Shown here one piece after another: positions 16,296 to 47,029 of a DNA stretch of 64,000 nt. Below the pieces are notes generated by a model. It made no database searches. It saw nothing but the letters and a program-made list of their open reading frames with translations, and was not told where the DNA came from. Within the stretch, counting starts at the first letter, position 1. Each line of letters opens with the position of its first letter. The translations under genes and the position numbers were made by a program. The stretch comes from an uncultured Alteromonadales bacterium (GTDB lineage: Bacteria > Pseudomonadota > Gammaproteobacteria > Pseudomonadales > Cellvibrionaceae): positions 1 to 64,000 of the forward strand of contig CALMJT010000041.1 of the NCBI GenBank assembly GCA_937864365.1. Reading direction: 5' to 3'.

Positions 16296-17621
16296 TCAGT
16301 TAGATCGTCCAATACCTATGTATTTAATGCCAATTTGAGACAGCCGAGACGGGCTGTACATATTTCGACCATCAACGATTAACGGGGTTTTTAAGCTAGA
16401 TTTAATGAGCTCAAAATCAGGCGCCCAAAACGCTTTCCACTCCGTACAAATCAAGAGCGCATCGGCTGCCAACAAACAGGATTCTTTGGTTCCCATCAGC
16501 TGAAGATCTTCTCGCTGCCCATAAATACGCTGCGCTTCGTGCATGGCTTCGGGGTCAAAAGCCTTAACCGAGGCACCACTGGCCCACAGAGACTCCAACA
16601 ATACCCGAGAAGATGCTTCTCGCATGTCATCAGTGTTGGGTTTAAAAGCTAATCCCCAAACGGCGAAAGTCTTACCTTTCAGATCGCCTGAAAAATAGGC
16701 CGTCAATTTTTCAAACAATCTAGATTTCTGCCGGTGATTAACGGCTTCAACAGACTCTAGTAATTGTGCGTGATAACCAACCGACCTGGCTGTGGAAACT
16801 AGAGCTTTAACATCTTTTGGAAAGCAAGAGCCACCGTAACCACAACCGGGATAAATAAACTGGTAACCAATGCGCGGGTCCGACCCGATTCCCTGTCTCA
16901 CTCGTTCAATATCAGCACCCACGTATTCCGCAATATTAGCCACTTCATTTATAAAACTAATTTTGGTTGCCAACATGGCGTTAGCCGCATACTTTGTAAG
17001 CTCAGCCGAGCGAACATCCATAAACATGAGTCTGTCGTGATTGCGATTAAACGGCGCATACAACTCCTCCATTGAAGCCCGCACACGCTCGGAATCCGTA
17101 CCAACAATAATTCGATCAGGCTTCATGAAGTCCGATACTGCGGCTCCCTCTTTCAAAAACTCTGGGTTAGAAGCGATGTGGTAAGCAATATCAACATTGC
17201 GAGCAGCTAAAACTTCAGCAACTTTTGCTCTCACTTTATCTGCGGTGCCAACAGGTACGGTAGATTTAGTGACCAAAATGACTTCGCGACTGACATATTC
17301 GGCGACTGTCTCGGCAACCTTCAGAACATACGATAAGTCTGCGGCGCCGTCTTCATCGGGCGGAGTACCAACCGCAATAAAAATGACCTGACCGTGTTTG
17401 ACGGCGTCTTCAGCGTTAGTGGTAAACGCTAAACGTCCGTGCGCAAAATTGGCTTTAACAACCGATTCCAACCCGGGCTCATAAATAGGAATTTGCCCGT
17501 TTTGCAAATTAAGAATCTTCTGTTCATCAACATCGACACAGACAACACTGTGGCCAACCTCTGCGAGACATGCACCGGTTACCAAACCGACATAACCCGT
17601 ACCAAAAACTGTTACTTTCAC
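16296..17621 (-). CDS. ugd: UDP-glucose 6-dehydrogenase
   Basis: Ugd oxidises UDP-glucose twice with NAD+ to UDP-glucuronate, a precursor of acidic exopolysaccharides. The 441-residue protein starts [20 protein letters not shown] with a Rossmann GxGxxG. It contains [35 protein letters not shown] and the catalytic cysteine in [14 protein letters not shown] at residue 266. The C-terminal UDP-binding part contains [15 protein letters not shown]. The start is GTG at 17621 with AAGGA about eleven bases upstream. It lies between the MFS gene and a divergent LuxR-type regulator, sharing a long upstream region with it. galU in this window supplies the substrate. Confidence 0.95.
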
Positions 17622-22100: not shown

Positions 22101-23525
22101 TCAATCTGCCGATGACCTTCCATACTTATCTTCAAAACGAACAATATCATCCTCACCAAGATAACTTCCCGATTGCACCTCAATTAACTCAAGGGGAATA
22201 CTCCCAGGGTTTTTAAGTTGATGGATTTGACCAATCGGAATATAGGTTGATTGATTTTCGGTCAAGATTGTTTCTGTGTCGCCATTTACGACCAATGCGG
22301 TGCCTGAGACAACTATCCAGTGCTCGGCGCGATGATGATGCATTTGTAACGACAGCTCGGCGCCTGGATTGACAACAATACGCTTTACTTGGAATCGATC
22401 ACCGCTATCAATTGAGTCGTAATATCCCCAAGGCCGGTAGACTTTTCGATGCACAGTCGCTTCAGGACGATTCTGGGTTTTTAACATCGAGACAATTTTT
22501 TTAACGTCTTGTACTCGATTCTTGCTGGCAACCATTAGAGAGTCGTCTGTATCAACAATAACCAAATCGTCAACACCTACAATAGCGATGAGTTTGTTAT
22601 CTGCCTGAACGAAGCATCCTGTAGCGTCTTCAGCAACCACATCGCCTTTTAATGTATTGCCGCTCGAATCTTTCTCAGAGACCTCCCAAAGAGCAGACCA
22701 AGATCCAACGTCACTCCAACCGGCATCCAAGGTAACCATAAGAGCGGATTCCGTTTTTTCCATAACAGCGTAGTCAATGGAATCCTCTGGACATTGCTCA
22801 AAAAAATCTTTGTCCACTCGGATAAAGTCCAAATCAGCTTGTGCCAATTCAAGAGCTTTTCGACAATACAAGACTATCTCGGGATTATGCTTTTCTAATT
22901 CTGCTAAATACCGCGAAGGCTTGAACAGAAACATGCCGCTGTTCCAGAAATAACTACCAGAACTTACATAATCTTTAGCGATTTCAATGGAAGGCTTCTC
23001 CACAAAACGATCAACTTTATACGCTGAATCTGAAAAGCCGCCCGCAGCTGTGCCTTTTTTTATGTAACCGTAACCCGTCTCGGGAGAACTAGGAACAATG
23101 CCAAATGTGACTAGGTACCCACTCAGCGCGCACTCCCGTGCAACCTCTATGGCTTTATGAAAAGCACCTATGTCTTTTATGACATGATCTGCCGGTAAAA
23201 TCAGCATAGGTGAATCATTACCAACGGATAACAACTGAAGAGCAGCCAAAGCAATTGCAGGAGCGGTGTTCTTCCCTACCGGCTCCAAAATAATGCCGGC
23301 TTGGCCCAGACCAATTTCTCTAAGTTGTTCAGCAACAGTAAATCGATGTTCTTTGTTACAAATGATCCAAGGCTCTTCAACAAACGACAATCCTTTCGTA
23401 CGTAAAAGGGTTTCTTGAATCATGGTATGGTTAGATACTAAAGACAGAAATTGTTTAGGATGTAATGACCGCGAATAGGGCCATAGACGAGTTCCGGAGC
23501 CGCCGGACAAAATTATCGGTACCAT
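22101..23525 (-). CDS. manC: Mannose-1-phosphate guanylyltransferase / mannose-6-phosphate isomerase
   Basis: A bifunctional enzyme of the AlgA/ManC type. The N-terminal nucleotidyltransferase makes GDP-mannose, and the C-terminal cupin isomerises fructose 6-phosphate to mannose 6-phosphate. The 474-residue length covers both. Visible are MVPIILSGGSGTRLWPYSR and KQFLSL at the start, FVEKPS and NSGMFLFKP in the middle, and the cupin segments RPWGYYDSIDSGDRFQVKRI, QMHHHRAEHWIVVSGTA and IPIGQIHQLKNPG with metal-binding histidines. With manB (6849) the route from fructose 6-phosphate to GDP-mannose is complete. It is divergent from rmlC and lies upstream of uvrA. Confidence 0.94.
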   Translation of the reverse strand: MVPIILSGGSGTRLWPYSRSLHPKQFLSLVSNHTMIQETLLRTKGLSFVEEPWIICNKEHRFTVAEQLREIGLGQAGIILEPVGKNTAPAIALAALQLLSVGNDSPMLILPADHVIKDIGAFHKAIEVARECALSGYLVTFGIVPSSPETGYGYIKKGTAAGGFSDSAYKVDRFVEKPSIEIAKDYVSSGSYFWNSGMFLFKPSRYLAELEKHNPEIVLYCRKALELAQADLDFIRVDKDFFEQCPEDSIDYAVMEKTESALMVTLDAGWSDVGSWSALWEVSEKDSSGNTLKGDVVAEDATGCFVQADNKLIAIVGVDDLVIVDTDDSLMVASKNRVQDVKKIVSMLKTQNRPEATVHRKVYRPWGYYDSIDSGDRFQVKRIVVNPGAELSLQMHHHRAEHWIVVSGTALVVNGDTETILTENQSTYIPIGQIHQLKNPGSIPLELIEVQSGSYLGEDDIVRFEDKYGRSSAD

Positions 23526-23578
23526 GCCTGTTTAATATATACCTTATACACTGAGTATGAATTGATTATTTTGTAAGT

Positions 23579-23608
23579 TTGTTCAGCATAAAACAACTTC
23601 TATACAAT
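23579..23608 (+). promoter_or_regulatory. Candidate sigma-70 promoter for rmlC-rmlD
   Basis: TTGTTC (23579-23584), an 18-bp spacer and TACAAT (23603-23608, within TATACAAT) lie about 70 bp before the rmlC start. The -10 box is good and the -35 box is modest. Confidence 0.4.
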
Positions 23609-23675
23609 AGGGCATGTCTTTTACGTAGATTTTTTTAGAATTACTTCTGACAAAATTCATTTAGAGTAGATAAAA

Positions 23676-24212
23676 ATGGAAATCCTAACAACAAAGCTTG
23701 AAGGTGTGGTAATCATAGAGCCAAAGATTTTTGGTGACGAAAGAGGTTTTTTCTTGGAAACCTTTCAGAAAGATCGATACAAAGATCTCGCTGGAATTCA
23801 CCTAGAATTCGTTCAAGATAACCATTCACGATCGTCTAAAGGGGTATTACGCGGACTTCACTTTCAAAAGTCCAAGCCTCAAGGAAAACTGGTTCGAGTT
23901 GTGCGCGGCGAAGTTTACGACGTAGCCGTGGACATAAACCCTGCCTCACCTACTTATGGTCAATACGAGGGCGTCATATTGAGCGAAACCAATAAGCGAC
24001 AATTCTGGGTTCCACCCGGCTACGCGCATGGTTTTGTTGTACTGAGCGACACCGCCGACTTCGAGTACAAATGCACAGATTATTATGACCCAAGTGACGA
24101 AGGTGGCATCATATGGAACGACCCCGATGTCGGTATCGATTGGCCGATTCTCGATCCCAAGCTTTCAGAAAAAGATTCGATTCTACCGACGCTAAAAGAA
24201 CTAAACGCATAA
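23676..24212 (+). CDS. rfbC: dTDP-4-dehydrorhamnose 3,5-epimerase
   Basis: RmlC epimerises dTDP-4-keto-6-deoxyglucose at C3 and C5 on the way to dTDP-L-rhamnose. The 178-residue length is typical. Visible cupin motifs are EPKIFGDERGFFLETF, the active-site segment DNHSRSSKGVLRGLHFQ with its His, GKLVRVVRGEVYDVAVD, and WVPPGYAHGFVVLS. It sits 18 bp before rmlD on the same strand. The partner genes rmlA and rmlB are not in this window, so the early steps must be encoded elsewhere. It is divergent from manC, inside a group of polysaccharide precursor genes. Confidence 0.95.
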   Translation: MEILTTKLEGVVIIEPKIFGDERGFFLETFQKDRYKDLAGIHLEFVQDNHSRSSKGVLRGLHFQKSKPQGKLVRVVRGEVYDVAVDINPASPTYGQYEGVILSETNKRQFWVPPGYAHGFVVLSDTADFEYKCTDYYDPSDEGGIIWNDPDVGIDWPILDPKLSEKDSILPTLKELNA

Positions 24213-24230
24213 TTTAACGAAGGAATTAGA

Positions 24231-25121
24231 GTGAAAATTTTAATTTTTGGGGCAAAAGGGCAAGTTGGAACCAGCTTAGTTAATGCATTAAAAGCCATCG
24301 AGGATTTATCTCTGTGTGCCCTGGATCGCGAAGACTGCGACTTTACAGACACACAAAAGATCAAAGAACAAATCTCTCTAATTCGTCCAGATCTTGTCAT
24401 TAATTGCTGCGCTTACACTGCAGTTGATAAAGCAGAGAGTGATGAAATCACTGCAGACCTTGTTAATCACACAGCAATGGAAACTATCGGGAAAGAAACC
24501 CACAAGCTCGATGCTCCCGTCATCCATATTTCAACCGATTATGTGTATACCGGAGAAGCTAAGGAACCCTATCAAGAAACCGATGAAACAGGGCCTTTGA
24601 GTGTTTATGGAAAAACAAAATTACTCGGAGACCTGAGTTTAACAGCCTCAAACGCAAAGCATATTATCTTGAGAACCAGCTGGGTGTTTGGAGAGCATGG
24701 CGCCAATTTCGTTAAAACCATGCTGCGATTAAGCGAAGGTAGAGATGAGATTAATGTCGTCTCAGATCAAAGAGGAAGACCTACCTATTCCGGCGATATT
24801 GTCGCGAGCATTGTCTTTTTTGTTGAGCAAATACGCACAAAAAAAGCAGTAAATTGGGGTATTTATCATTGCTCCAGTAATGGTGAAACCAATTGGTATG
24901 AGTTTGCCGTTGCGATTTTCGCTGCTGCCAAGGTTAACGGGCTAATAAATAAATCCATGAAGGTAAACCCGATTCCAACCTCTCAATACCCTACCCCTGC
25001 GCCAAGGCCTTTATACTCGGTTCTAAACACCCAAAAGCTCGAGAAAACTTTGGGACATAAAATTCCGCATTGGAATATCGGTTTAGAAAAAGTACTCTCG
25101 TTTATTAAAGCCGAAAAGTAG
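24231..25121 (+). CDS. rfbD: dTDP-4-dehydrorhamnose reductase
   Basis: RmlD reduces the 4-keto group with NAD(P)H to give dTDP-L-rhamnose. The 296-residue protein has the nucleotide-binding loop MKILIFGAKGQVGTSLV, VINCCAYTAVDKAESD, ISTDYVYTGEAKEPYQE, and the catalytic YGKTK with both Tyr and Lys. LRTSWVFGEHGANFVKTM and VVSDQRGRPTYSGDI follow, all characteristic. The start is GTG at 24231 with GAAGGA seven bases upstream. It is cotranscribed with rmlC. It is intact, unlike the degenerate paralogue at 13227. Confidence 0.95.
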   Translation: MKILIFGAKGQVGTSLVNALKAIEDLSLCALDREDCDFTDTQKIKEQISLIRPDLVINCCAYTAVDKAESDEITADLVNHTAMETIGKETHKLDAPVIHISTDYVYTGEAKEPYQETDETGPLSVYGKTKLLGDLSLTASNAKHIILRTSWVFGEHGANFVKTMLRLSEGRDEINVVSDQRGRPTYSGDIVASIVFFVEQIRTKKAVNWGIYHCSSNGETNWYEFAVAIFAAAKVNGLINKSMKVNPIPTSQYPTPAPRPLYSVLNTQKLEKTLGHKIPHWNIGLEKVLSFIKAEK

Positions 25122-25133
25122 TTGTACCCCACC

Positions 25134-25170
25134 TCTCGATGACAAAACTTGTCTGGTTAAGTCATCGAGA
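25134..25170 (+). terminator. Candidate terminator hairpin after rmlCD
   Basis: TCTCGATGAC (25134-25143) pairs perfectly with GTCATCGAGA (25161-25170) over a 17-nt loop that can extend the stem a little. Only a short A/T-rich tail follows, with no clear T-run. Confidence 0.4.
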
Positions 25171-25339
25171 AAATATAACTCTCGCCAACATTATTAATTA
25201 CGACGCCACTTATTCCTCTATTACCGAGTTCCTTTCAACAACAAATGCGCAAAGACACTACCTTGGCATTTTGATAGCATAAACACCTTTTACCCTTCGT
25301 AAAAATAGTCATTCTCATTACACAACAGCAGAGGAAGTG

Positions 25340-26905
25340 ATGTTTAACCTCTTGGATCAGCGTCCAACCAACATTAAAAATGACGTACTTTCTGGAATAA
25401 CAGTTGCGCTAGCGTTAGTGCCGGAAGCCGTTGCATTTGCATTTATTGCCGGTGTAGAGCCAATGGTTGGTCTCTACGCCGCCTTTATGATGGGATTAAT
25501 TACATCGATTGTTGGTGGTCGGCCCGGAATGATCTCCGGAGCCACGGGAGCAACCGCTGTCGTTATGACATCACTGGTTGTTGTGCATGGTGTCGAATAT
25601 CTATTTGCAACCGTTCTTCTCGCTGGAATATTGCAAATAATCGCCGGAATTTTAAAACTGGGAAAATTTATCAGAATTGTTCCACACCCGGTGATGCTCG
25701 GTTTTGTAAATGGGTTAGCGATTGTCATTTTTCTTTCTCAAAAAGATTTATTTAAGTTCGAATCGAGCGAAGACGTGTGGCAGTGGTTGCAAGGCACCGA
25801 AATGCTATTCATGGTCAGCCTTGTTGCGATTACCATGTTGATCATGCACTTTCTGCCTAAAATAACTAATGCTGTACCGGCAGGTCTCGTCGCAATTGTC
25901 TCCGTGTCCCTCGCCGTTTTAATGCTCGACCTACCGGCTAGAACAGTAATCGATTTTGTTGCCGACAAGCTACCCGAGTCCCTAGCCGACTCAGCTACGC
26001 TACAAGGAACACTTCCCAGTTTTAGCATCCCGCAAGTTCCTTATACCTTTGCAACTCTTTGGATCATTTTGCCTTACGCAGCCATTATTGCTGCCGTAGG
26101 TTTAATCGAATCTTTGTTAACACTCACCGTTATCGACGAACTGACTAACACGCGTGGAAAAGGCAATCGGGAATGTATTGGTCAAGGCGTTGCCAACTCC
26201 GTAAATGGCCTATTCGGCGCCATGGGTGGCTGTGCGATGATCGGCCAAAGCATGATTAACATCAACAATGGAGGGCGCGGTAGGTTATCGGGAATCACTG
26301 CAGCCTTGGTCTTGTTAGCATTTATCTTATTCGCCGCACCTCTCATTGAGCAAATCCCACTGGCGGCATTAGTCGGCGTTATGTTCATGGTGGTGCTAGG
26401 CACATTTGAATGGTCTAGTTTCAGAATAATGCGCAAAATTCCAATCACAGACGCCTTTGTCATCGTACTCGTGTCCGTCGTGACTGTATTTTTTGATCTA
26501 GCCATTGCTGTTATTACCGGAGTAATAGTCTCCGCTCTGGCATTCGCTTGGAAACATGCTCAACATATTTATGCAGATGTTTCCTATGATAGTTATGGCA
26601 GAAAAATCTACGATTTAAGAGGCCCTGTGTTTTTCGGGTCCGTTAGTAATTTTAAAGAGATCTTTGATATTGAAAACGATCCTCAAGAAGTGATCATCGA
26701 ATTCAAAAGATCCAGAATCAGCGACCACTCTGGTATTGATGCATTGGATGCTATTGCCGAAAAATATCAGAACCTCGGTAAGACACTTCACATAAGACAC
26801 ATCAGTGAGGAATGTAGAGAGTTACTTTCTAAGGCAGGAGACCTGTGTGAAATCAATGTGCTGGAAGACCCAATCTATCACGTTGCCAGTGATAAGCTGG
26901 GATAG
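25340..26905 (+). CDS. SulP-family inorganic anion transporter with STAS domain
   Basis: SulP proteins carry sulfate, bicarbonate or similar anions across the inner membrane; the substrate here cannot be told. The 521-residue protein has the family N-terminus ([22 protein letters not shown]), about 12-14 membrane segments to near residue 415, and the conserved [16 protein letters not shown] region. A cytoplasmic STAS domain follows ([12 protein letters not shown], then [16 protein letters not shown] with the conserved DHSGIDAL loop). The start is taken as the ATG at 25340, where GAGG is five bases upstream. The GTG at 25337 would be too close. It follows rmlCD after a hairpin and ends at a shared terminator. 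Confidence 0.9.
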
Positions 26906-26952
26906 CGTTTAGCAGAGGTTACTGAATAACGTTTTCGTTGTTAGACCTTTAT

Positions 26953-26982
26953 AAAAAAGCCGAGCATTTGCTCGGCTTTTTT
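26953..26982. terminator. Bidirectional terminator between sulP gene and wcaJ-like gene
   Basis: GCCGAGC (26959-26965) pairs with GCTCGGC (26970-26976), flanked by A6 and T6. It works for both convergent genes. Confidence 0.9.
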
Positions 26983-26993
26983 GCTCTTTTTAG

Positions 26994-28445
26994 CTAGTAA
27001 GCATTCTTATTGATGAAACCTTTAAAGATAGTTAAGAAGATTATCTTGATATCCCATGCAACCGACCAGTTACGAATATAATGTAGGTCGTACTCAACGC
27101 GCCGCTCCATCTTATCTAAGGTATCGGTTTCACCTCTAGCTCCGTTTACCTGCGCCCAACCAGTAATTCCAGGTTTAATCTTATGGCGTAACATATATCC
27201 CGATATTTTCTCACGATACATTTCGTTGTGAGCAACAGCATGAGGACGAGGACCAACAATAGACATGTTGCCCTCAAGCACATTTAAGAACTGAGGTAGT
27301 TCGTCCAAAGAGGTTCTTCTTAAAAAAGCACCTAGTTTAGTGATACGCGTATCATTTTTCTGTGCTTGTTTAATTTGAGAAGAGTCATCTTCACACACGG
27401 TCATTGATCTAAATTTCCACATTTTAAACGGGCGGCCATCCAAACCATATCGCGTCTGCCGGAAGAAAATTGGTCCCTTGGAAGTTAATTTAACCGCCGC
27501 GGCGATAACCAGCATTGGACCACTGATAATTGCCAGAATTATCAACGCCAAAACGATATCTTCCATCCGTTTTAACATAGACATGGTGCCGCGATTAGGT
27601 TCACCAACAATACCAATAGCGGGAATACCGTTTAAGTTTACAGTTCGCGCATGAAGTAAATCGAACATAAACACATCCGGAATGATGTACACGGACGTCG
27701 CCGAAGTCGCCAGGCGTTTGGTGATCCAGCGGATTCTCTCCTCACCGCGCATTGGAATGGTTAGGTATACTTGATCAATTTTTCCAGCTCTAGCTTCGGC
27801 AATGAGATCAGAAAAATCCCCGCTGAGAGGACATACGTGAGAGACGCCCGAATCAGTACGTTCTTTTTGATTGGGTTCCAAATCTCTTTTAACGGGGTTT
27901 TGTCTGTCGTCGTAAAACCCTCTGATTACATAACCGCCCCAAGTGCACTTCTGCAATCTGTGAGCAACTTCAAGCGCTAACTCACCGTTTCCGACAATAG
28001 CCACATTACGGGTGTTATAACCTTTATCACGCAGTTTCTGTACAAGGACACGAGCTGATAAACGCCAGCCCAGCAACAATATAAGGGAGACAAAAAACCA
28101 AAGAGAAAACTGAGGCCATGCGAATAATGATGCCTCTAAATTGGTTAGGCTTCCTATTGCGAGTATTACAATGAAACTGGCTAACCAGCAGTAAGTAACT
28201 TGCTTAGCCTCAGCCCAGATGGTTTCGGACCGCCAAGAGCGATAAATTTCTGCAAATTCCGCAGCAAACTGAAGGCAAATAACGGCGCCTAACGCTGCCA
28301 ATAAATAAGTTTGAGGTAGGGATTGCACAGTGATAAGCGATGTGATTACAACACCGGTAATTACGATTGCACAATCGACGACCCGCGCTAACAACGCAAA
28401 TAAAGAACTATGAGGCTTAACCACTCCTTTGGCGTTCATTCCCAT
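26994..28445 (-). CDS. Undecaprenyl-phosphate glycosyl-1-phosphate transferase, WcaJ-like
   Basis: Polyprenyl-phosphate hexose-1-phosphate transferases of this type start a lipid-linked repeat unit at the inner membrane by moving a sugar phosphate (often glucose) to undecaprenyl phosphate. About 483 residues: four N-terminal membrane segments, a CoA-binding-like Rossmann part (NTRNVAIVGNGELALEVAHRL), a further membrane segment, and the catalytic domain with PIFFRQTRYGLDGRPFKMWKFRSM, RRTSLDELPQFLNVLEG and MSIVGPRPHAV. It ends in GWAQVNGARGET and a tail region. Start choice is uncertain: GTG at 28457 has a GGGA too close, so ATG 28445 is used; 28439 is also possible. It is probably the first step in the polysaccharide route of this region. 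Confidence 0.9.
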   Translation of the reverse strand: MGMNAKGVVKPHSSLFALLARVVDCAIVITGVVITSLITVQSLPQTYLLAALGAVICLQFAAEFAEIYRSWRSETIWAEAKQVTYCWLASFIVILAIGSLTNLEASLFAWPQFSLWFFVSLILLLGWRLSARVLVQKLRDKGYNTRNVAIVGNGELALEVAHRLQKCTWGGYVIRGFYDDRQNPVKRDLEPNQKERTDSGVSHVCPLSGDFSDLIAEARAGKIDQVYLTIPMRGEERIRWITKRLATSATSVYIIPDVFMFDLLHARTVNLNGIPAIGIVGEPNRGTMSMLKRMEDIVLALIILAIISGPMLVIAAAVKLTSKGPIFFRQTRYGLDGRPFKMWKFRSMTVCEDDSSQIKQAQKNDTRITKLGAFLRRTSLDELPQFLNVLEGNMSIVGPRPHAVAHNEMYREKISGYMLRHKIKPGITGWAQVNGARGETDTLDKMERRVEYDLHYIRNWSVAWDIKIIFLTIFKGFINKNAY

Positions 28446-28457
28446 AAATACATTCAC

Positions 28458-42420: not shown

Positions 42421-42753
<333 letters not shown>

Positions 42754-43230: not shown

Positions 43231-45885
43231 ATGGATGATGTATTACAACGCAACCCGGATAACGACTCTAGCGGCGACCCTTTTTTCGCGACTCCAGAAA
43301 ACTCCCAAACGATCCGCTGTTATACCCTAGCAGCTATTGAAACGCACACTCAAAAATTTCCGGAAAAAATAGCCGCAAGCTTTGAAGGTGAGTCGATTAG
43401 CTATCGCGAACTAGAACAACAGTCTCAAATACTAGCAAACGCTTTAATATCGAGCTTTGGCCCCAAACCTGTTTGCGCTTGCAGTATACGTCCAAGCTTA
43501 TTTAATCCAGTCATTCTGCTCGCAATTTTAAAATCAGGCGGAACCTATGTTCCAATTGATCCCGATTTTCCAGAAACGCGGATTATTTACATTTTAGAAA
43601 CCACTGGCGCCAACATTTGTTTTGTTAGCGATTCCGATCTTGCCAATTTTCCAAAACAAACTTCCAGACACTCTTTTTCTGTTCTAGCCAGCTCCGCAAT
43701 TGATACATTTTGCGAAAACGCATTAAAAGGCCAGCTCGACAATTCCGATAAAAAAAGCACTCAGCCTTTGTTTGGAAAAAATACAACACCTTCAGATATT
43801 GCGTATATCTTTTTTACGTCAGGAACCACTGGCAATCCAAAAGCTGTACAGGGCTCCTACTCAAACCTAAATTATTACGTTCAAAGTGCTATTCAAGAAT
43901 TTCACTTGGATACTCAAACTCACATGGCTGTAATAGCCAAATTTAGCTTTAGCATTAGCCTATTTGACCTTTTATGCCCACTGGTTGCCGGTGGCACTAT
44001 CGAAATATTACCTAGGGATTTAATCGTTAACGATGAGGCCATGTTGACGGTATTTACCAAGGTCAACACATTTCATATCGGACCTACGCTTCTTCGAAAA
44101 ATATTAAAACTTTTAGATGCAACTGATCCTGCCAAAATCCCTTCGTTTGCGCACATCCGTCATGCATCTTCGGGCGGAGATATAGTACCCGCCGATATTA
44201 TGTTAAAACTCGGTCGCATTTTCCCCAACGCCGAAATATTTACTATTTATGGCTGCACAGAAATCGCATGCATGGGTTGTAGATACGAGCTTAACCGAGA
44301 AAATCCGGCGGATATCTCACTCGTCGGCAAGGCGTTTCCCAACACTCAAGCCATTCTACTTGATGAAAATTTCACACCTGTTGATCAAGGCGAGAAAGGG
44401 GAAATATTTTTTTCTGGGCCGGGTGTTACTTCGGGATACATTAACAACGAACAGGAAAATACCTCAAAGTTTATTGACTTGAACGGCCAACGTTTTTATC
44501 GCACCGGCGATATTGGTGCCCAAGACAAGAACGGTAATATCGCGGTTTTGGGCCGCAAAGATTTTCAAGTAAAAATTAACGGTATTCGTGTTGAGCTTGC
44601 CGAAATAGAAACGCAAATAAAATCACTAACAAAAATTCATGACGCCGCCGTTATGAATTTCTTGGTAAACGACGAAACCAAAATCTACGGTTTTCTGGTC
44701 GGCGACATTATTCAGTCTGACATTAAAGAAATTCGTCTAGCACTTAAAGAAAAGCTACCTTCATTTATGATTCCCAATGGATTTGTCATTCTCGACAAAT
44801 TACCGCTAAACAATAATATGAAGGTTGATCGAAAAGCCTTAACTTTACCGTCCCGAAATGAATTAGTCCGTGAAACTCAGTTTCAAGCCGCGATCACCGA
44901 CACGCAAATTAGCTTGGTAAAAATCTGGCAGACAATTTTGAAAGAGGCTCAAGTCGGTATTGATGACGACTTTTTTGCGCTTGGCGGCGATTCTTTAGCC
45001 GCCGCACAGATGCTTTCAAGCATTCATTCCGAGCTTCTAGTTGCGCTTCCAATCCAGACTTTTTTGCAAAGACCAGTGCTGCGCGACATCGCAGAATTAA
45101 TCGATTCTAAAGACAAACAATTGTCTTGCGAAAATACTGTAGAGCTTAAGTCTGGCGACTCAACCCCGCTGTTTTGTTTTTACGGAGTACTACTGTATCG
45201 CGATCTTGCAAATGCATTACCTGAACAGCAGCGCACCATTGGCGTTTTCTTACACGAAGAATTGGAATTACTCGCAAAAAATAATCTTGCCGATATGCTT
45301 ACAGAGTTATCCAGCGTGCGAGTTATTGCGGAAAAGTACATTAACGAGATAAAAAAATCACAACCCCAAGGCCCATACTTGTTCGCCGGGGAATCCTTTG
45401 GCGGCATTGTAGCACTTGAAGCAGCCTCTATTTTAAGTGACCAAGGCGAGACCGTGAGCTTGGTTGCAATGCTTGATTCTTGGCTACCGCATTCGGCTCA
45501 GGGTACAACGTTTAGAAGAAATCTTGAAAAAGCCGTCTATTTAGCATCGACTCCACAAAAACTTTATCAAAAAGTAAAATCACACATTTTAAATAACAAA
45601 AAAAATATTGCTACGAATACAACCGCATCCCCTCAATTTGATATAGCAGAAAAAGCCCGACTTATACTTACACAAAACTACATTCCACCTACGTATTCGG
45701 GCGAAGTAGTGTTTTATCAAGCGCGCGAAAGTGATCCTAGATCTACTTTTGAAAGCTCCAGAGGCTGGTCAAAATATCTGAAAAATTTAACAGTAAAAAC
45801 CATTCCCGGCGACCATTTGGGTATTTTAAAACACCCCAATGTTGATGAATTAGCAAGAGATCTAGCTGGTCGATTAAAAAAATAA
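43231..45885 (+). CDS. Stand-alone NRPS-like synthetase, adenylation-thiolation-thioesterase
   Basis: The 884-residue protein has three domains and no condensation domain. Adenylation (about 30-540): TSGTTGNPKAV (196-206), YGCTEIA (340-346), YRTGD (423-427), GRKDFQVKINGIRVEL and the catalytic Lys531 in NMKVDRKAL. Thiolation: DDDFFALGGDSL with phosphopantetheine Ser588. Thioesterase: GESFGG with Ser722, Asp749 and His862. At the place of GrsA Asp235, which holds the alpha-amino group, the motif FSFSISLFD puts Ser241. By eye this suggests a substrate that is not an ordinary alpha-amino acid, such as a keto, hydroxy or aryl acid. A-T-TE enzymes that dimerise aryl-pyruvates (RalA type) share this plan. 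No carrier-activating transferase gene is in the window. It ends 20 bp from a convergent GT2 gene. Confidence 0.88.
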   Translation: MDDVLQRNPDNDSSGDPFFATPENSQTIRCYTLAAIETHTQKFPEKIAASFEGESISYRELEQQSQILANALISSFGPKPVCACSIRPSLFNPVILLAILKSGGTYVPIDPDFPETRIIYILETTGANICFVSDSDLANFPKQTSRHSFSVLASSAIDTFCENALKGQLDNSDKKSTQPLFGKNTTPSDIAYIFFTSGTTGNPKAVQGSYSNLNYYVQSAIQEFHLDTQTHMAVIAKFSFSISLFDLLCPLVAGGTIEILPRDLIVNDEAMLTVFTKVNTFHIGPTLLRKILKLLDATDPAKIPSFAHIRHASSGGDIVPADIMLKLGRIFPNAEIFTIYGCTEIACMGCRYELNRENPADISLVGKAFPNTQAILLDENFTPVDQGEKGEIFFSGPGVTSGYINNEQENTSKFIDLNGQRFYRTGDIGAQDKNGNIAVLGRKDFQVKINGIRVELAEIETQIKSLTKIHDAAVMNFLVNDETKIYGFLVGDIIQSDIKEIRLALKEKLPSFMIPNGFVILDKLPLNNNMKVDRKALTLPSRNELVRETQFQAAITDTQISLVKIWQTILKEAQVGIDDDFFALGGDSLAAAQMLSSIHSELLVALPIQTFLQRPVLRDIAELIDSKDKQLSCENTVELKSGDSTPLFCFYGVLLYRDLANALPEQQRTIGVFLHEELELLAKNNLADMLTELSSVRVIAEKYINEIKKSQPQGPYLFAGESFGGIVALEAASILSDQGETVSLVAMLDSWLPHSAQGTTFRRNLEKAVYLASTPQKLYQKVKSHILNNKKNIATNTTASPQFDIAEKARLILTQNYIPPTYSGEVVFYQARESDPRSTFESSRGWSKYLKNLTVKTIPGDHLGILKHPNVDELARDLAGRLKK

Positions 45886-45905: not shown

Positions 45906-46883
45906 TTAGGAAATGTTGGGACCCTTAGCAAAAACACTGTTTTTGATTGAGTCGGAAAGAAGATGTGGTGGATCTGTGTCTGTTTTACCCTGAATTTTTC
46001 GGCGTAATCGCCAAAGCGCGAAGCACGCAATCCAAAATATGTCGGCAAAAGCCGCGTAGAAAACAGAATAATTTTTTGAAAAATAATAACGACGTGAATC
46101 AAATAAATATTTAGGCGTACGCTTAGGCTTAGTGTCGGCAGAATTCACTCCGGTACTGTCTCCAGCGATGTGCATTACTCGACTTTCTGGCACATACCAA
46201 CATTCCCAACCCGCACGATTGGCTGCCAAGCAAAAATCCGTCTCTTCGTAATAAAGAAAATAGGTTTCATCCATAAGCCCGACCGTTTGGTAAACCTCTT
46301 TACGCACCAGCATGCTTGCACCCGGCAACCAATCAACCTGTTCGGCTTTATCAGACATTTCTCGCGGCACAATATAATTGTTGAGCAGTTTAGTAACCAC
46401 ACCCAACTTCAAGCCGCGATCAATTTCGCTCAATATGGAAGGAAAGCGAAACGCGATTTGCCATAAAGAGCCGTCTGGATTTTCAAAACAACCACCGGCA
46501 ATGCCTGCTTTTGGATGCACTTCTAAAAAGTCTTTAAGAATAACGAGTGCGTTTTCGCGAACTTCGGTATCGGGATTTAATAAATGGAAATAATCTGGCG
46601 GAGAATCGCTTTCTAGTGCTTGGCGGATTGCGTAATTATTTCCATACGCATAGCCGCCATTTTTGGGCGCCTGCAAAGCAAATGCCCAATTCCAGCCCTG
46701 CGCTTTAATGTGTGAATCAATGATACTGCAAGAATCATCTTGGGAGTCGTTATCGACAACAACAACACATGTGTTTGGGATTTTATCCACTTCTTTGGAT
46801 AATTCATTCAAGCAATCTATGGTGCGTAGCGGTGTTTTGTAATTGACAATTACCACCAAATAATCGCACTGGGTCCAATCCAT
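45906..46883 (-). CDS. Glycosyltransferase family 2, rhamnosyltransferase-like
   Basis: A GT-A fold transferase of 325 residues, soluble or loosely membrane-associated. Motifs are VVIVNYKTPLRTIDCL at the start, VVVVDNDSQDDS, PKNGGYAYGNNYAIRQAL, the metal-binding YFHLLNPDTEV, and DWLPGASMLVRKEVYQTVGL. FFLYYEETDF-like LYYEETDFCLAANRAGW follows, typical of rhamnosyl- and related transferases. Donor and acceptor cannot be told; dTDP-rhamnose from the rmlCD products is one possibility. The TTG at 46913 was rejected for the ATG at 46883, which has AGGA about nine bases upstream. It stands alone, convergent with the A-T-TE gene. Confidence 0.88.
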   Translation of the reverse strand: MDWTQCDYLVVIVNYKTPLRTIDCLNELSKEVDKIPNTCVVVVDNDSQDDSCSIIDSHIKAQGWNWAFALQAPKNGGYAYGNNYAIRQALESDSPPDYFHLLNPDTEVRENALVILKDFLEVHPKAGIAGGCFENPDGSLWQIAFRFPSILSEIDRGLKLGVVTKLLNNYIVPREMSDKAEQVDWLPGASMLVRKEVYQTVGLMDETYFLYYEETDFCLAANRAGWECWYVPESRVMHIAGDSTGVNSADTKPKRTPKYLFDSRRYYFSKNYSVFYAAFADIFWIACFALWRLRRKIQGKTDTDPPHLLSDSIKNSVFAKGPNIS

Positions 46884-47029
46884 AACTAACGTCCTAAATA
46901 GGTTGTTGAACAATTATTAGCGTTCGGCGCCAGCATTAACATGCAAGTAACCCAGAACCAAGCCTGTACAGAAGTTATTTTTGACTATACAGGATAGATT
47001 TCTCGCGCTCAATTCGGGAAAAATGACAT

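What the first reader, a model, noticed from the sequence alone, without database searches (positions are those of the whole stretch)
43231..45885. Stand-alone A-T-TE synthetase whose adenylation domain appears to lack the alpha-amino-acid aspartate
The sequence shows adenylation, thiolation and thioesterase domains with intact catalytic residues and no condensation domain. Aligned by eye to GrsA, the Asp235 position reads Ser (FSFSISLFD), while the catalytic Lys (KVDRKAL) is kept. Known A-T-TE enzymes of this plan (bacterial RalA, fungal atromentin-type synthetases) join two aryl-pyruvates, and they too lack that Asp. A small furanone, quinone or ester product is therefore possible. The gene stands next to the ribosomal S10 operon and not in a recognisable biosynthetic cluster.
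Basis: partly seen in the sequence, partly recalled or inferred. Interest (0 to 1): 0.75.

Follow-up and report, generated by a model that had tools for sequence, protein, structure and literature searches.

The report
Tyrosine-fed A-T-TE synthetase with odd pocket
This bacterial gene encodes a small assembly-line enzyme whose substrate pocket is not built for ordinary amino acids, and many of its relatives sit beside an enzyme of the kind that makes homogentisate from a tyrosine breakdown product, which suggests that homogentisate or a near relative is its unexpected building block.

Summary
Window 43231-45885 (+) is an 884-aa A-T-TE enzyme with Ser, not Asp, at the GrsA-235 position; the pocket reads SIFHSGICMK. 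The arylpyruvate-dimer interpretation is weakened: published alpha-keto-acid A domains are said to carry Val there. The A domain belongs to a well-supported clade seen in 24 of 144 genomes of its family. The clade is tied to 4-hydroxyphenylpyruvate dioxygenase (HPPD). A divergent HPPD clade occurs in 11 of the 144, all 11 with the S235 A domain, close to it in 7. A half-size HPPD-like protein occurs in 13; it adjoins the A domain in 12, and in the 13th it holds a stop codon and no A-T-TE was found around it. The pocket differs consistently between the two partner types. An order-wide search by A domain alone then found two more genomes with this code; HPPD or a fragment of it adjoined 3 of their 4 loci. 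The own genome has one HPPD, of the divergent clade but on another contig, and no homogentisate dioxygenase match. Best reading: HPPD makes homogentisate and the A-T-TE activates it; the product is unknown, possibly linked to a polysaccharide. No biochemistry has been done.

The parts
43231..45885 (+). A-T-TE synthetase gene, 884 aa
43339..44841 (+). adenylation domain (residues 37-537, including the C-terminal sub-domain with Lys531)
   Evidence: AlphaFold2 model, ten-residue means mostly above 80 here; GrsA 1amu matched with target TM-score 0.84
43942..43968 (+). pocket block FSFSISLFD; Ser241 codon 43951-43953 stands where GrsA has Asp235
44914..45102 (+). thiolation (carrier) domain, Ser588 in GGDSL
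45190..45864 (+). thioesterase domain, Ser722 / Asp749 / His862
45906..46913 (-). family-2 glycosyltransferase, convergent neighbour; a homologue lies in the neighbourhood read in 4 of 24 family loci (window, L066, L090, L099); possible partner only
42421..42747 (-). rpsJ, first gene of the S10 operon, divergent neighbour; marks a shared site, not thought to be part of the system

Best explanation
The protein is an NRPS-like enzyme that activates the product of a dedicated 4-hydroxyphenylpyruvate dioxygenase, most likely homogentisate. Proposed steps: 4-hydroxyphenylpyruvate is turned into homogentisate by the divergent HPPD encoded on contig C216 of this genome; the A domain adenylates homogentisate, its Ser235 pocket having no alpha-amino group to hold; the acyl group is loaded on Ser588 of the carrier domain; the TE releases it through Ser722 as an ester or lactone, or hands it to an acceptor. 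Shown: domain anatomy, loss of Asp235, monophyly of the S235 clade, its co-occurrence and frequent adjacency with HPPD-type genes, HPPD-type catalytic residues in the partner, no match to homogentisate dioxygenase in this genome. Inferred: that the A domain's substrate is the HPPD product; that this product is homogentisate; everything about release and final product.
For: Co-occurrence: the divergent HPPD clade is in 11 of 144 family genomes and all 11 have the S235 A domain. The half-size HPPD-like protein c6 is in 13 of 144, 12 with the S235 A domain; the 13th (G106) has a TGA in c6 and no A-T-TE hit in the 19 kb read around it. Fisher p 2.7e-10 and 3.1e-10, relatedness ignored. Adjacency: HPPD next to the A domain gene in 7 of 24 loci (L065, L067 with one ORF between, L068, L090, L091, L098, L099), c6 in 12 of 24 (11; the twelfth, G111, by coordinates). 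Held-out test: an order-wide search with the A domain alone (390 genomes) found G694 and G645 outside the family; 4 of 4 loci read SIFHSGICM(K) and 3 of 4 have HPPD, once a broken fragment, next door. Pocket tracks partner: HPPD genomes SIF[HL]SG[IL]CMK (11 of 11), c6 genomes SIFH[LI]G[NC]C[ML]K (12 of 12). HPPD type: two His, one Glu, two Gln and Phe364/Phe368 (human numbering) in 13 of 13 full-length partner HPPDs; changing that first Phe to Ile makes a bacterial HPPD form hydroxymandelate as well (PMC3739788, passages). Sink: homogentisate dioxygenase matches in 20 of 144 genomes, not in this one.
Against: No biochemistry and no docking. In the window's own genome the HPPD lies on a different contig amid housekeeping genes. 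It is also unlinked in G001, G021 and G092, and no HPPD was seen on the short contig of G645's locus L178. G024 has the S235 A domain but neither the divergent HPPD nor c6; it has an ordinary HPPD and an odd one. G016 keeps a homogentisate dioxygenase. The 12 c6 cases lie in one genus and mostly in one locus type, so they are few independent events. Pocket and partner are confounded with descent: the c6-linked A domains are one clade. In one relative, L067, the TE nucleophile column has Arg, in L066 Cys (17 of 19 rows have Ser).
Confidence: 0.55

Rival explanations
1. Arylpyruvate synthetase of the RalA/EchA/atromentin plan: the A domain activates 4-hydroxyphenylpyruvate or phenylpyruvate itself and the TE joins two of them to a furanone or quinone; HPPD is present only because both draw on the same pool.
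For: Same A-T-TE plan, no Asp235. The HPPD substrate is 4-hydroxyphenylpyruvate, so the linkage also points to that pool. c6-linked rows have Leu/Ile at code position 5, which resembles the Val/Ile of phenylpyruvate enzymes (PMC10316625, section 11).
Against: Code position 1 is Ser throughout the clade, while Val is stated to indicate alpha-keto-acid A domains (PMC10316625, passages). HPPD-linked rows have Ser at position 5, not Asn, Val or Ile. An adjacent HPPD would consume the substrate. In G016 and G027 the domain is the first A domain of a longer NRPS.
Confidence: 0.15
2. The dioxygenase partner yields another aryl acid, for example 4-hydroxymandelate, and the A domain is specific for that; the alpha-hydroxyl would allow TE-made oligoesters.
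For: c6 is far from ordinary HPPD (best PDB match E 8.5e-9) and by eye keeps the first of the two Phe but not the second; c6-linked pockets differ at code positions 5 and 7.
Against: 13 of 13 full-length partner HPPDs keep the homogentisate-type residues, the window genome's own among them.
Confidence: 0.15
3. The A domain activates an unrelated acid, and linkage to HPPD reflects a larger biosynthetic island, for example an exopolysaccharide cluster, and not a substrate relation.
For: Polysaccharide genes surround many loci; a ten-residue code cannot be read safely outside characterised clades.
Against: HPPD adjoins the A domain gene also in L065, L067, L068 and L091, where no member of the export gene clusters c1-c5 was seen (other neighbours there were not family-searched), and c6 and A-T-TE decay together in G106.
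Confidence: 0.15

Closest known systems
Fungal atromentin/polyporic acid synthetases and bacterial RalA, EchA (A-T-TE)
   Same: A-T-TE without C domain; no Asp at code position 1; substrate probably from the aromatic keto-acid pool
   Different: Ser instead of the Val named for alpha-keto-acid enzymes (PMC10316625, passages); tied to HPPD; same kind of A domain also occurs first in longer NRPSs. No sequence comparison with RalA or EchA made
GrsA/LgrA-type alpha-amino-acid A domains
   Same: closest by sequence (LgrA) and by fold (AB3403, EntF, SrfA-C, LgrA, also GrsA)
   Different: Asp235 absent in the whole clade; FSIS in place of the usual SFDxS block and YG[CSA][ST]E in place of YGPTE
4-hydroxyphenylpyruvate dioxygenase (partner enzyme)
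   Same: TIGR01263 above cut-off, catalytic residues kept
   Different: divergent clade that goes with the S235 A domain; in this genome without homogentisate dioxygenase
EntE/DhbE aryl-acid ligases (recalled)
   Same: A domain for an aromatic acid without alpha-amine
   Different: stand-alone enzymes with Asn at that position (recalled); here nearest to the amino-acid type and fused to T-TE

Membership tests
Arylpyruvate-dimerising A-T-TE synthetases (atromentin, RalA) | A-T-TE architecture without condensation domain | tested here: met
Arylpyruvate-dimerising A-T-TE synthetases (atromentin, RalA) | Val at code position 1 (alpha-keto-acid marker, PMC10316625 passages) | tested here: not met
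   Ser in the window gene and in the clade
Arylpyruvate-dimerising A-T-TE synthetases (atromentin, RalA) | groups with RalA/EchA in an A-domain tree | not tested
   no RalA or EchA sequence was obtained
Arylpyruvate-dimerising A-T-TE synthetases (atromentin, RalA) | makes a furanone or quinone from two arylpyruvates | not testable with these tools
   needs biochemistry
alpha-amino-acid-activating A domain | Asp at GrsA 235 | tested here: not met
alpha-amino-acid-activating A domain | Lys517 equivalent | tested here: met
   Lys531; Lys in 19 of 19 rows
HPPD (own-genome partner, G000:C216, L137:8966-9991 -) | score above the TIGR01263 cut-off (277 bits) | tested here: met
   336.2 bits
HPPD (own-genome partner, G000:C216, L137:8966-9991 -) | two His and one Glu iron ligands, Phe364/Phe368 equivalents | tested here: met
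4-hydroxymandelate synthase | Ile at the Phe364 position (F337I gives hydroxymandelate, PMC3739788 passages; Ile355 in the S. coelicolor enzyme is my reading of a residue list in PMC3720870) | tested here: not met
   Phe in 13 of 13 full-length partner HPPDs
functional unit A-T-TE plus HPPD | A domain accepts the HPPD product | not testable with these tools
   genomic association only

The most novel reading that the evidence does not exclude
HPPD plus S235 A-T-TE is an unrecognised cassette that activates homogentisate and attaches this redox-active hydroquinone to a surface or secreted polysaccharide, the TE acting as transferase; in genus g4 the HPPD has been replaced by a protein reduced to the catalytic half, with a matching change of the A-domain pocket.
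Probability: 0.2. Interest if true: 0.85.

Novelty: new variant of a known kind. Interest (0 to 1): 0.6.

Why it matters
If right, it adds an HPPD product (homogentisate, best known as a tyrosine breakdown intermediate and melanin precursor) to the building blocks of nonribosomal assembly lines, gives a readable pocket signature for it, and predicts a function for a set of orphan genes in Cellvibrionaceae and related bacteria. It would also show an amino-acid-type A domain losing its Asp together with the arrival of a dioxygenase partner. Five paper searches aimed at such a link (open-licence PubMed Central papers only) listed no paper whose title or abstract start reports an adenylation domain for homogentisate or an HPPD paired with an A-T-TE; I judged from the listings and did not open those papers.

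Tried and rejected
Dimerising arylpyruvate synthetase as the main reading: kept as a rival, weakened by Ser at code position 1 and by the HPPD linkage. Hydroxymandelate as the product of the full-length partners: argued against by their residues.

The class-wide search (369 genomes, E <= 1e-110) brought no clade member besides the window's own gene; codes of its 17 other loci are, where L152 has Ser but an unrelated code. The phylum-wide search (398 genomes, E <= 1e-122) brought only the own gene and G1136, whose A domains are Asp-type. G814 has SILHWGAGLK and no HPPD in the 20 kb read; counted outside the clade. G003's HPPD is in the low score band but not of the partner clade.

Limits: searches scored only 4 candidates a genome and only 6, so members may have been missed in genomes rich in NRPS genes. 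One search used E <= 1e-100; G027 (7.4e-100) was added; weaker S235 domains in the other 120 genomes were not sought. The first HPPD tree holds 22 of the 88 HPPD places; the rest were sorted by score only (ordinary 382-418 bits, partner clade 321-366). G024b and the L180 fragment were left out of the second tree. AlphaFold2 on c6 failed (mean pLDDT 37.6) and was not used. The A-T-TE model gave no coordinates to scripts, so no pocket superposition was made. A half condensation domain in the N-terminal extension of some relatives was suspected by eye; Pfam reported none in the one A-T-TE with such an extension that I tested (L063). Papers: five were opened, by passages only (PMC10316625, PMC12105029, PMC3720870, PMC3739788, PMC13111500), plus section 11 of PMC10316625.

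Full report
WHAT IS THERE. The window gene at 43231-45885 (+) encodes 884 aa. Pfam finds AMP-binding, PP-binding and Thioesterase and no Condensation domain. Lys531 of the A domain, Ser588 of the carrier and Ser722, Asp749 and His862 of the TE are present. An AlphaFold2 model has mean pLDDT 80; its best PDB matches are termination modules (AB3403, EntF, SrfA-C), and GrsA matches with a target-normalised TM-score of 0.84. The block FSFSISLFD aligns gap-free with the Asp-bearing block of LgrA, so the GrsA-235 residue is Ser. The full code is SIFHSGICMK (positions placed from recalled GrsA motifs).

WHERE IT IS. The gene lies divergent from rpsJ. In S. corallicola and G016 the related gene is in the same region, with one gene between it and rpsJ: a WecG-type glycosyltransferase and an HPPD respectively. 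A family-2 glycosyltransferase is the convergent neighbour in the window.

THE CLADE. A search of 144 genomes of the family gave 23 genomes at E <= 1e-100, the own one included; G027 was added. In each of the 24 one A domain has Ser at 235 and a nearly fixed code (Ser rows kept; the Asp-type hits of the same genomes are). In a tree of 43 A domains these 24 form one side of a branch with 100/100 support, in 100% of 200 bootstrap trees. A-T-TE was confirmed by Pfam in the window gene, L063, L091 and, outside the family, L177; in most others it rests on the alignment through the TE. L067 is doubtful (match stops before the TE, Arg in the nucleophile column) and L099 is split over two overlapping frames. 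In G016 and G027 the domain is the first A domain of a longer NRPS that ends in a TE.

THE PARTNER. Comparing 24 neighbourhoods showed an HPPD gene next to the A domain gene in 7 loci (in L067 with one ORF between) and a half-size HPPD-like gene, c6, in 11; a twelfth c6, in G111, had been hidden by an overlapping ORF and shows by coordinates. The window's genome has a single HPPD, 341 aa, on contig C216 amid housekeeping genes. In a tree of 22 HPPDs it falls, with ten others, on one side of a branch (95/93) whose other side holds the ordinary HPPDs and the odd G024b. All 11 genomes of that group have the S235 A domain. By score none of the other 133 genomes has such an HPPD; two low-scoring exceptions, G003 and G024b, do not group with it. 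The match also holds inside two genera: in g17, G062 has both genes and G017 and G063 neither; in g23, G159 has both and G023 neither. c6 occurs in 13 of 144 genomes, in 12 with the A domain gene next to it. In the 13th, G106, c6 carries a TGA and no A-T-TE hit is found in the surrounding 19 kb. So 23 of 24 S235 genomes have one or the other partner, none both; G024 is the exception.

AN INDEPENDENT CHECK. An order-wide search of 390 genomes with the A-domain alignment alone found, outside the family, G694 (one locus) and G645 (three loci) with 506-566 bits, and G814 with 432. The first four loci read SIFHSGICM(K). In G694 and in one G645 locus a full-length HPPD adjoins the gene in the same direction; in a second G645 locus a broken HPPD fragment does, beside a split A-T-TE frame; in the third none was seen, the contig ending about 800 bases beyond the gene. 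G814 has a different code and no HPPD in the 20 kb read. In a second tree with the two new full-length HPPDs (G024b left out), the ordinary HPPDs are one side of a 100/100 branch and all 13 partner HPPDs lie on the other.

WHICH PRODUCT. The 13 full-length partner HPPDs keep both iron-binding His, the Glu, the two substrate Gln and both C-terminal Phe. Changing the first of those Phe to Ile in a bacterial HPPD gave hydroxymandelate and an oxepinone besides homogentisate (PMC3739788, passages). Homogentisate is therefore the likely product. Homogentisate dioxygenase, the next step of tyrosine breakdown, has a match in 20 of 144 family genomes; of the 24 S235 genomes only G016 is among them. c6 has invariant His9, His90 and Glu146, which I take by eye for the iron ligands, but is only weakly similar to HPPD; its reaction is open.

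POCKET AND PARTNER. HPPD genomes have SIF[HL]SG[IL]CMK (11 of 11), c6 genomes SIFH[LI]G[NC]C[ML]K (12 of 12). This is what one expects if the A domain reads the partner's product, but the c6-linked A domains are also one clade, so common descent explains part of it.

SURROUNDINGS. Members of the gene cluster named Wzc-like (c1) lie in the 20-kb neighbourhood in 13 of 24 family loci, 12 of them in one genus (named by Pfam in one of them, L103), and in 2 of 4 outside loci. Sugar-transferase, rhamnose or glycosyltransferase genes are near several others, the window among them. In L063, L065, L067, L068, L091 and L092 no member of clusters c1-c5 or of the glycosyltransferase cluster c14 was seen; their other neighbours were not family-searched. 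A polysaccharide role is thus a lead, not a finding.

A study of fungal quinone synthetases states that Val at code position 1 indicates alpha-keto-acid activation, and that position 5 is Val/Ile for phenylpyruvate and Asn for 4-hydroxyphenylpyruvate (PMC10316625, passages and section 11). The present clade has Ser at position 1, and at position 5 Ser (HPPD-linked) or Leu/Ile (c6-linked); the latter would suit a phenyl group. RalA and EchA sequences were not compared.

VERDICT. Observation confirmed; interpretation partly supported. The most likely mechanism is activation of homogentisate, or a close relative made by the HPPD-type partner, by an A domain nearest to the amino-acid type, with TE release to an unknown product. 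Confidence 0.55 that the HPPD product is the substrate; the final product is open.

Noticed in passing
L094:6970-7638, and 12 further genomes of genus g4: c6, about 220 aa, looks like an HPPD reduced to its catalytic C-terminal half, with invariant His9, His90, Glu146; no Pfam match in the two tested, weak TIGR01263 match. Reaction unknown.
   Followed up: partly
G000:C141:5945-7873 (L013): Another A domain of the own genome without Asp235 (Thr; code TPFYxGGCIK), in a 1061-aa frame; groups with a Met-type domain of G024 on long branches.
   Followed up: no
G000:C216:18000-54000: Large NRPS cluster of the own genome with ten condensation domains and a fragment; the A domains read there are Asp-type.
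   Followed up: no
L066:8065-10794: The S. corallicola relative has Cys in place of the TE nucleophile Ser (GLCIGG), a swap known (recalled) from lactone- and lactam-forming TEs.
   Followed up: no
window:6849-9079, 16296-17621, 22101-28457: Sugar-nucleotide and polysaccharide initiation genes lie 15-36 kb left of the A-T-TE gene: ManC-, RmlC-, RmlD- and WcaJ-type by Pfam, UDP-glucose dehydrogenase and others by eye.
   Followed up: partly
L164 (G106:C2:33000-52000): Apparent decay of the system: c6 with a TGA, an HPPD about 40% identical to the partner type near by, no A-T-TE hit.
   Followed up: partly
G645 (L178, L179, L180): One genome with three S235 A-domain loci, one of them with a broken HPPD and a split A-T-TE frame.
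   Followed up: partly
L063, L064, L065, L068, L093, L094, L095, L099: about 200-300 aa before the A domain: Extra N-terminal region in several relatives, by eye like the end of a condensation domain; Pfam reports none in L063.
   Followed up: partly
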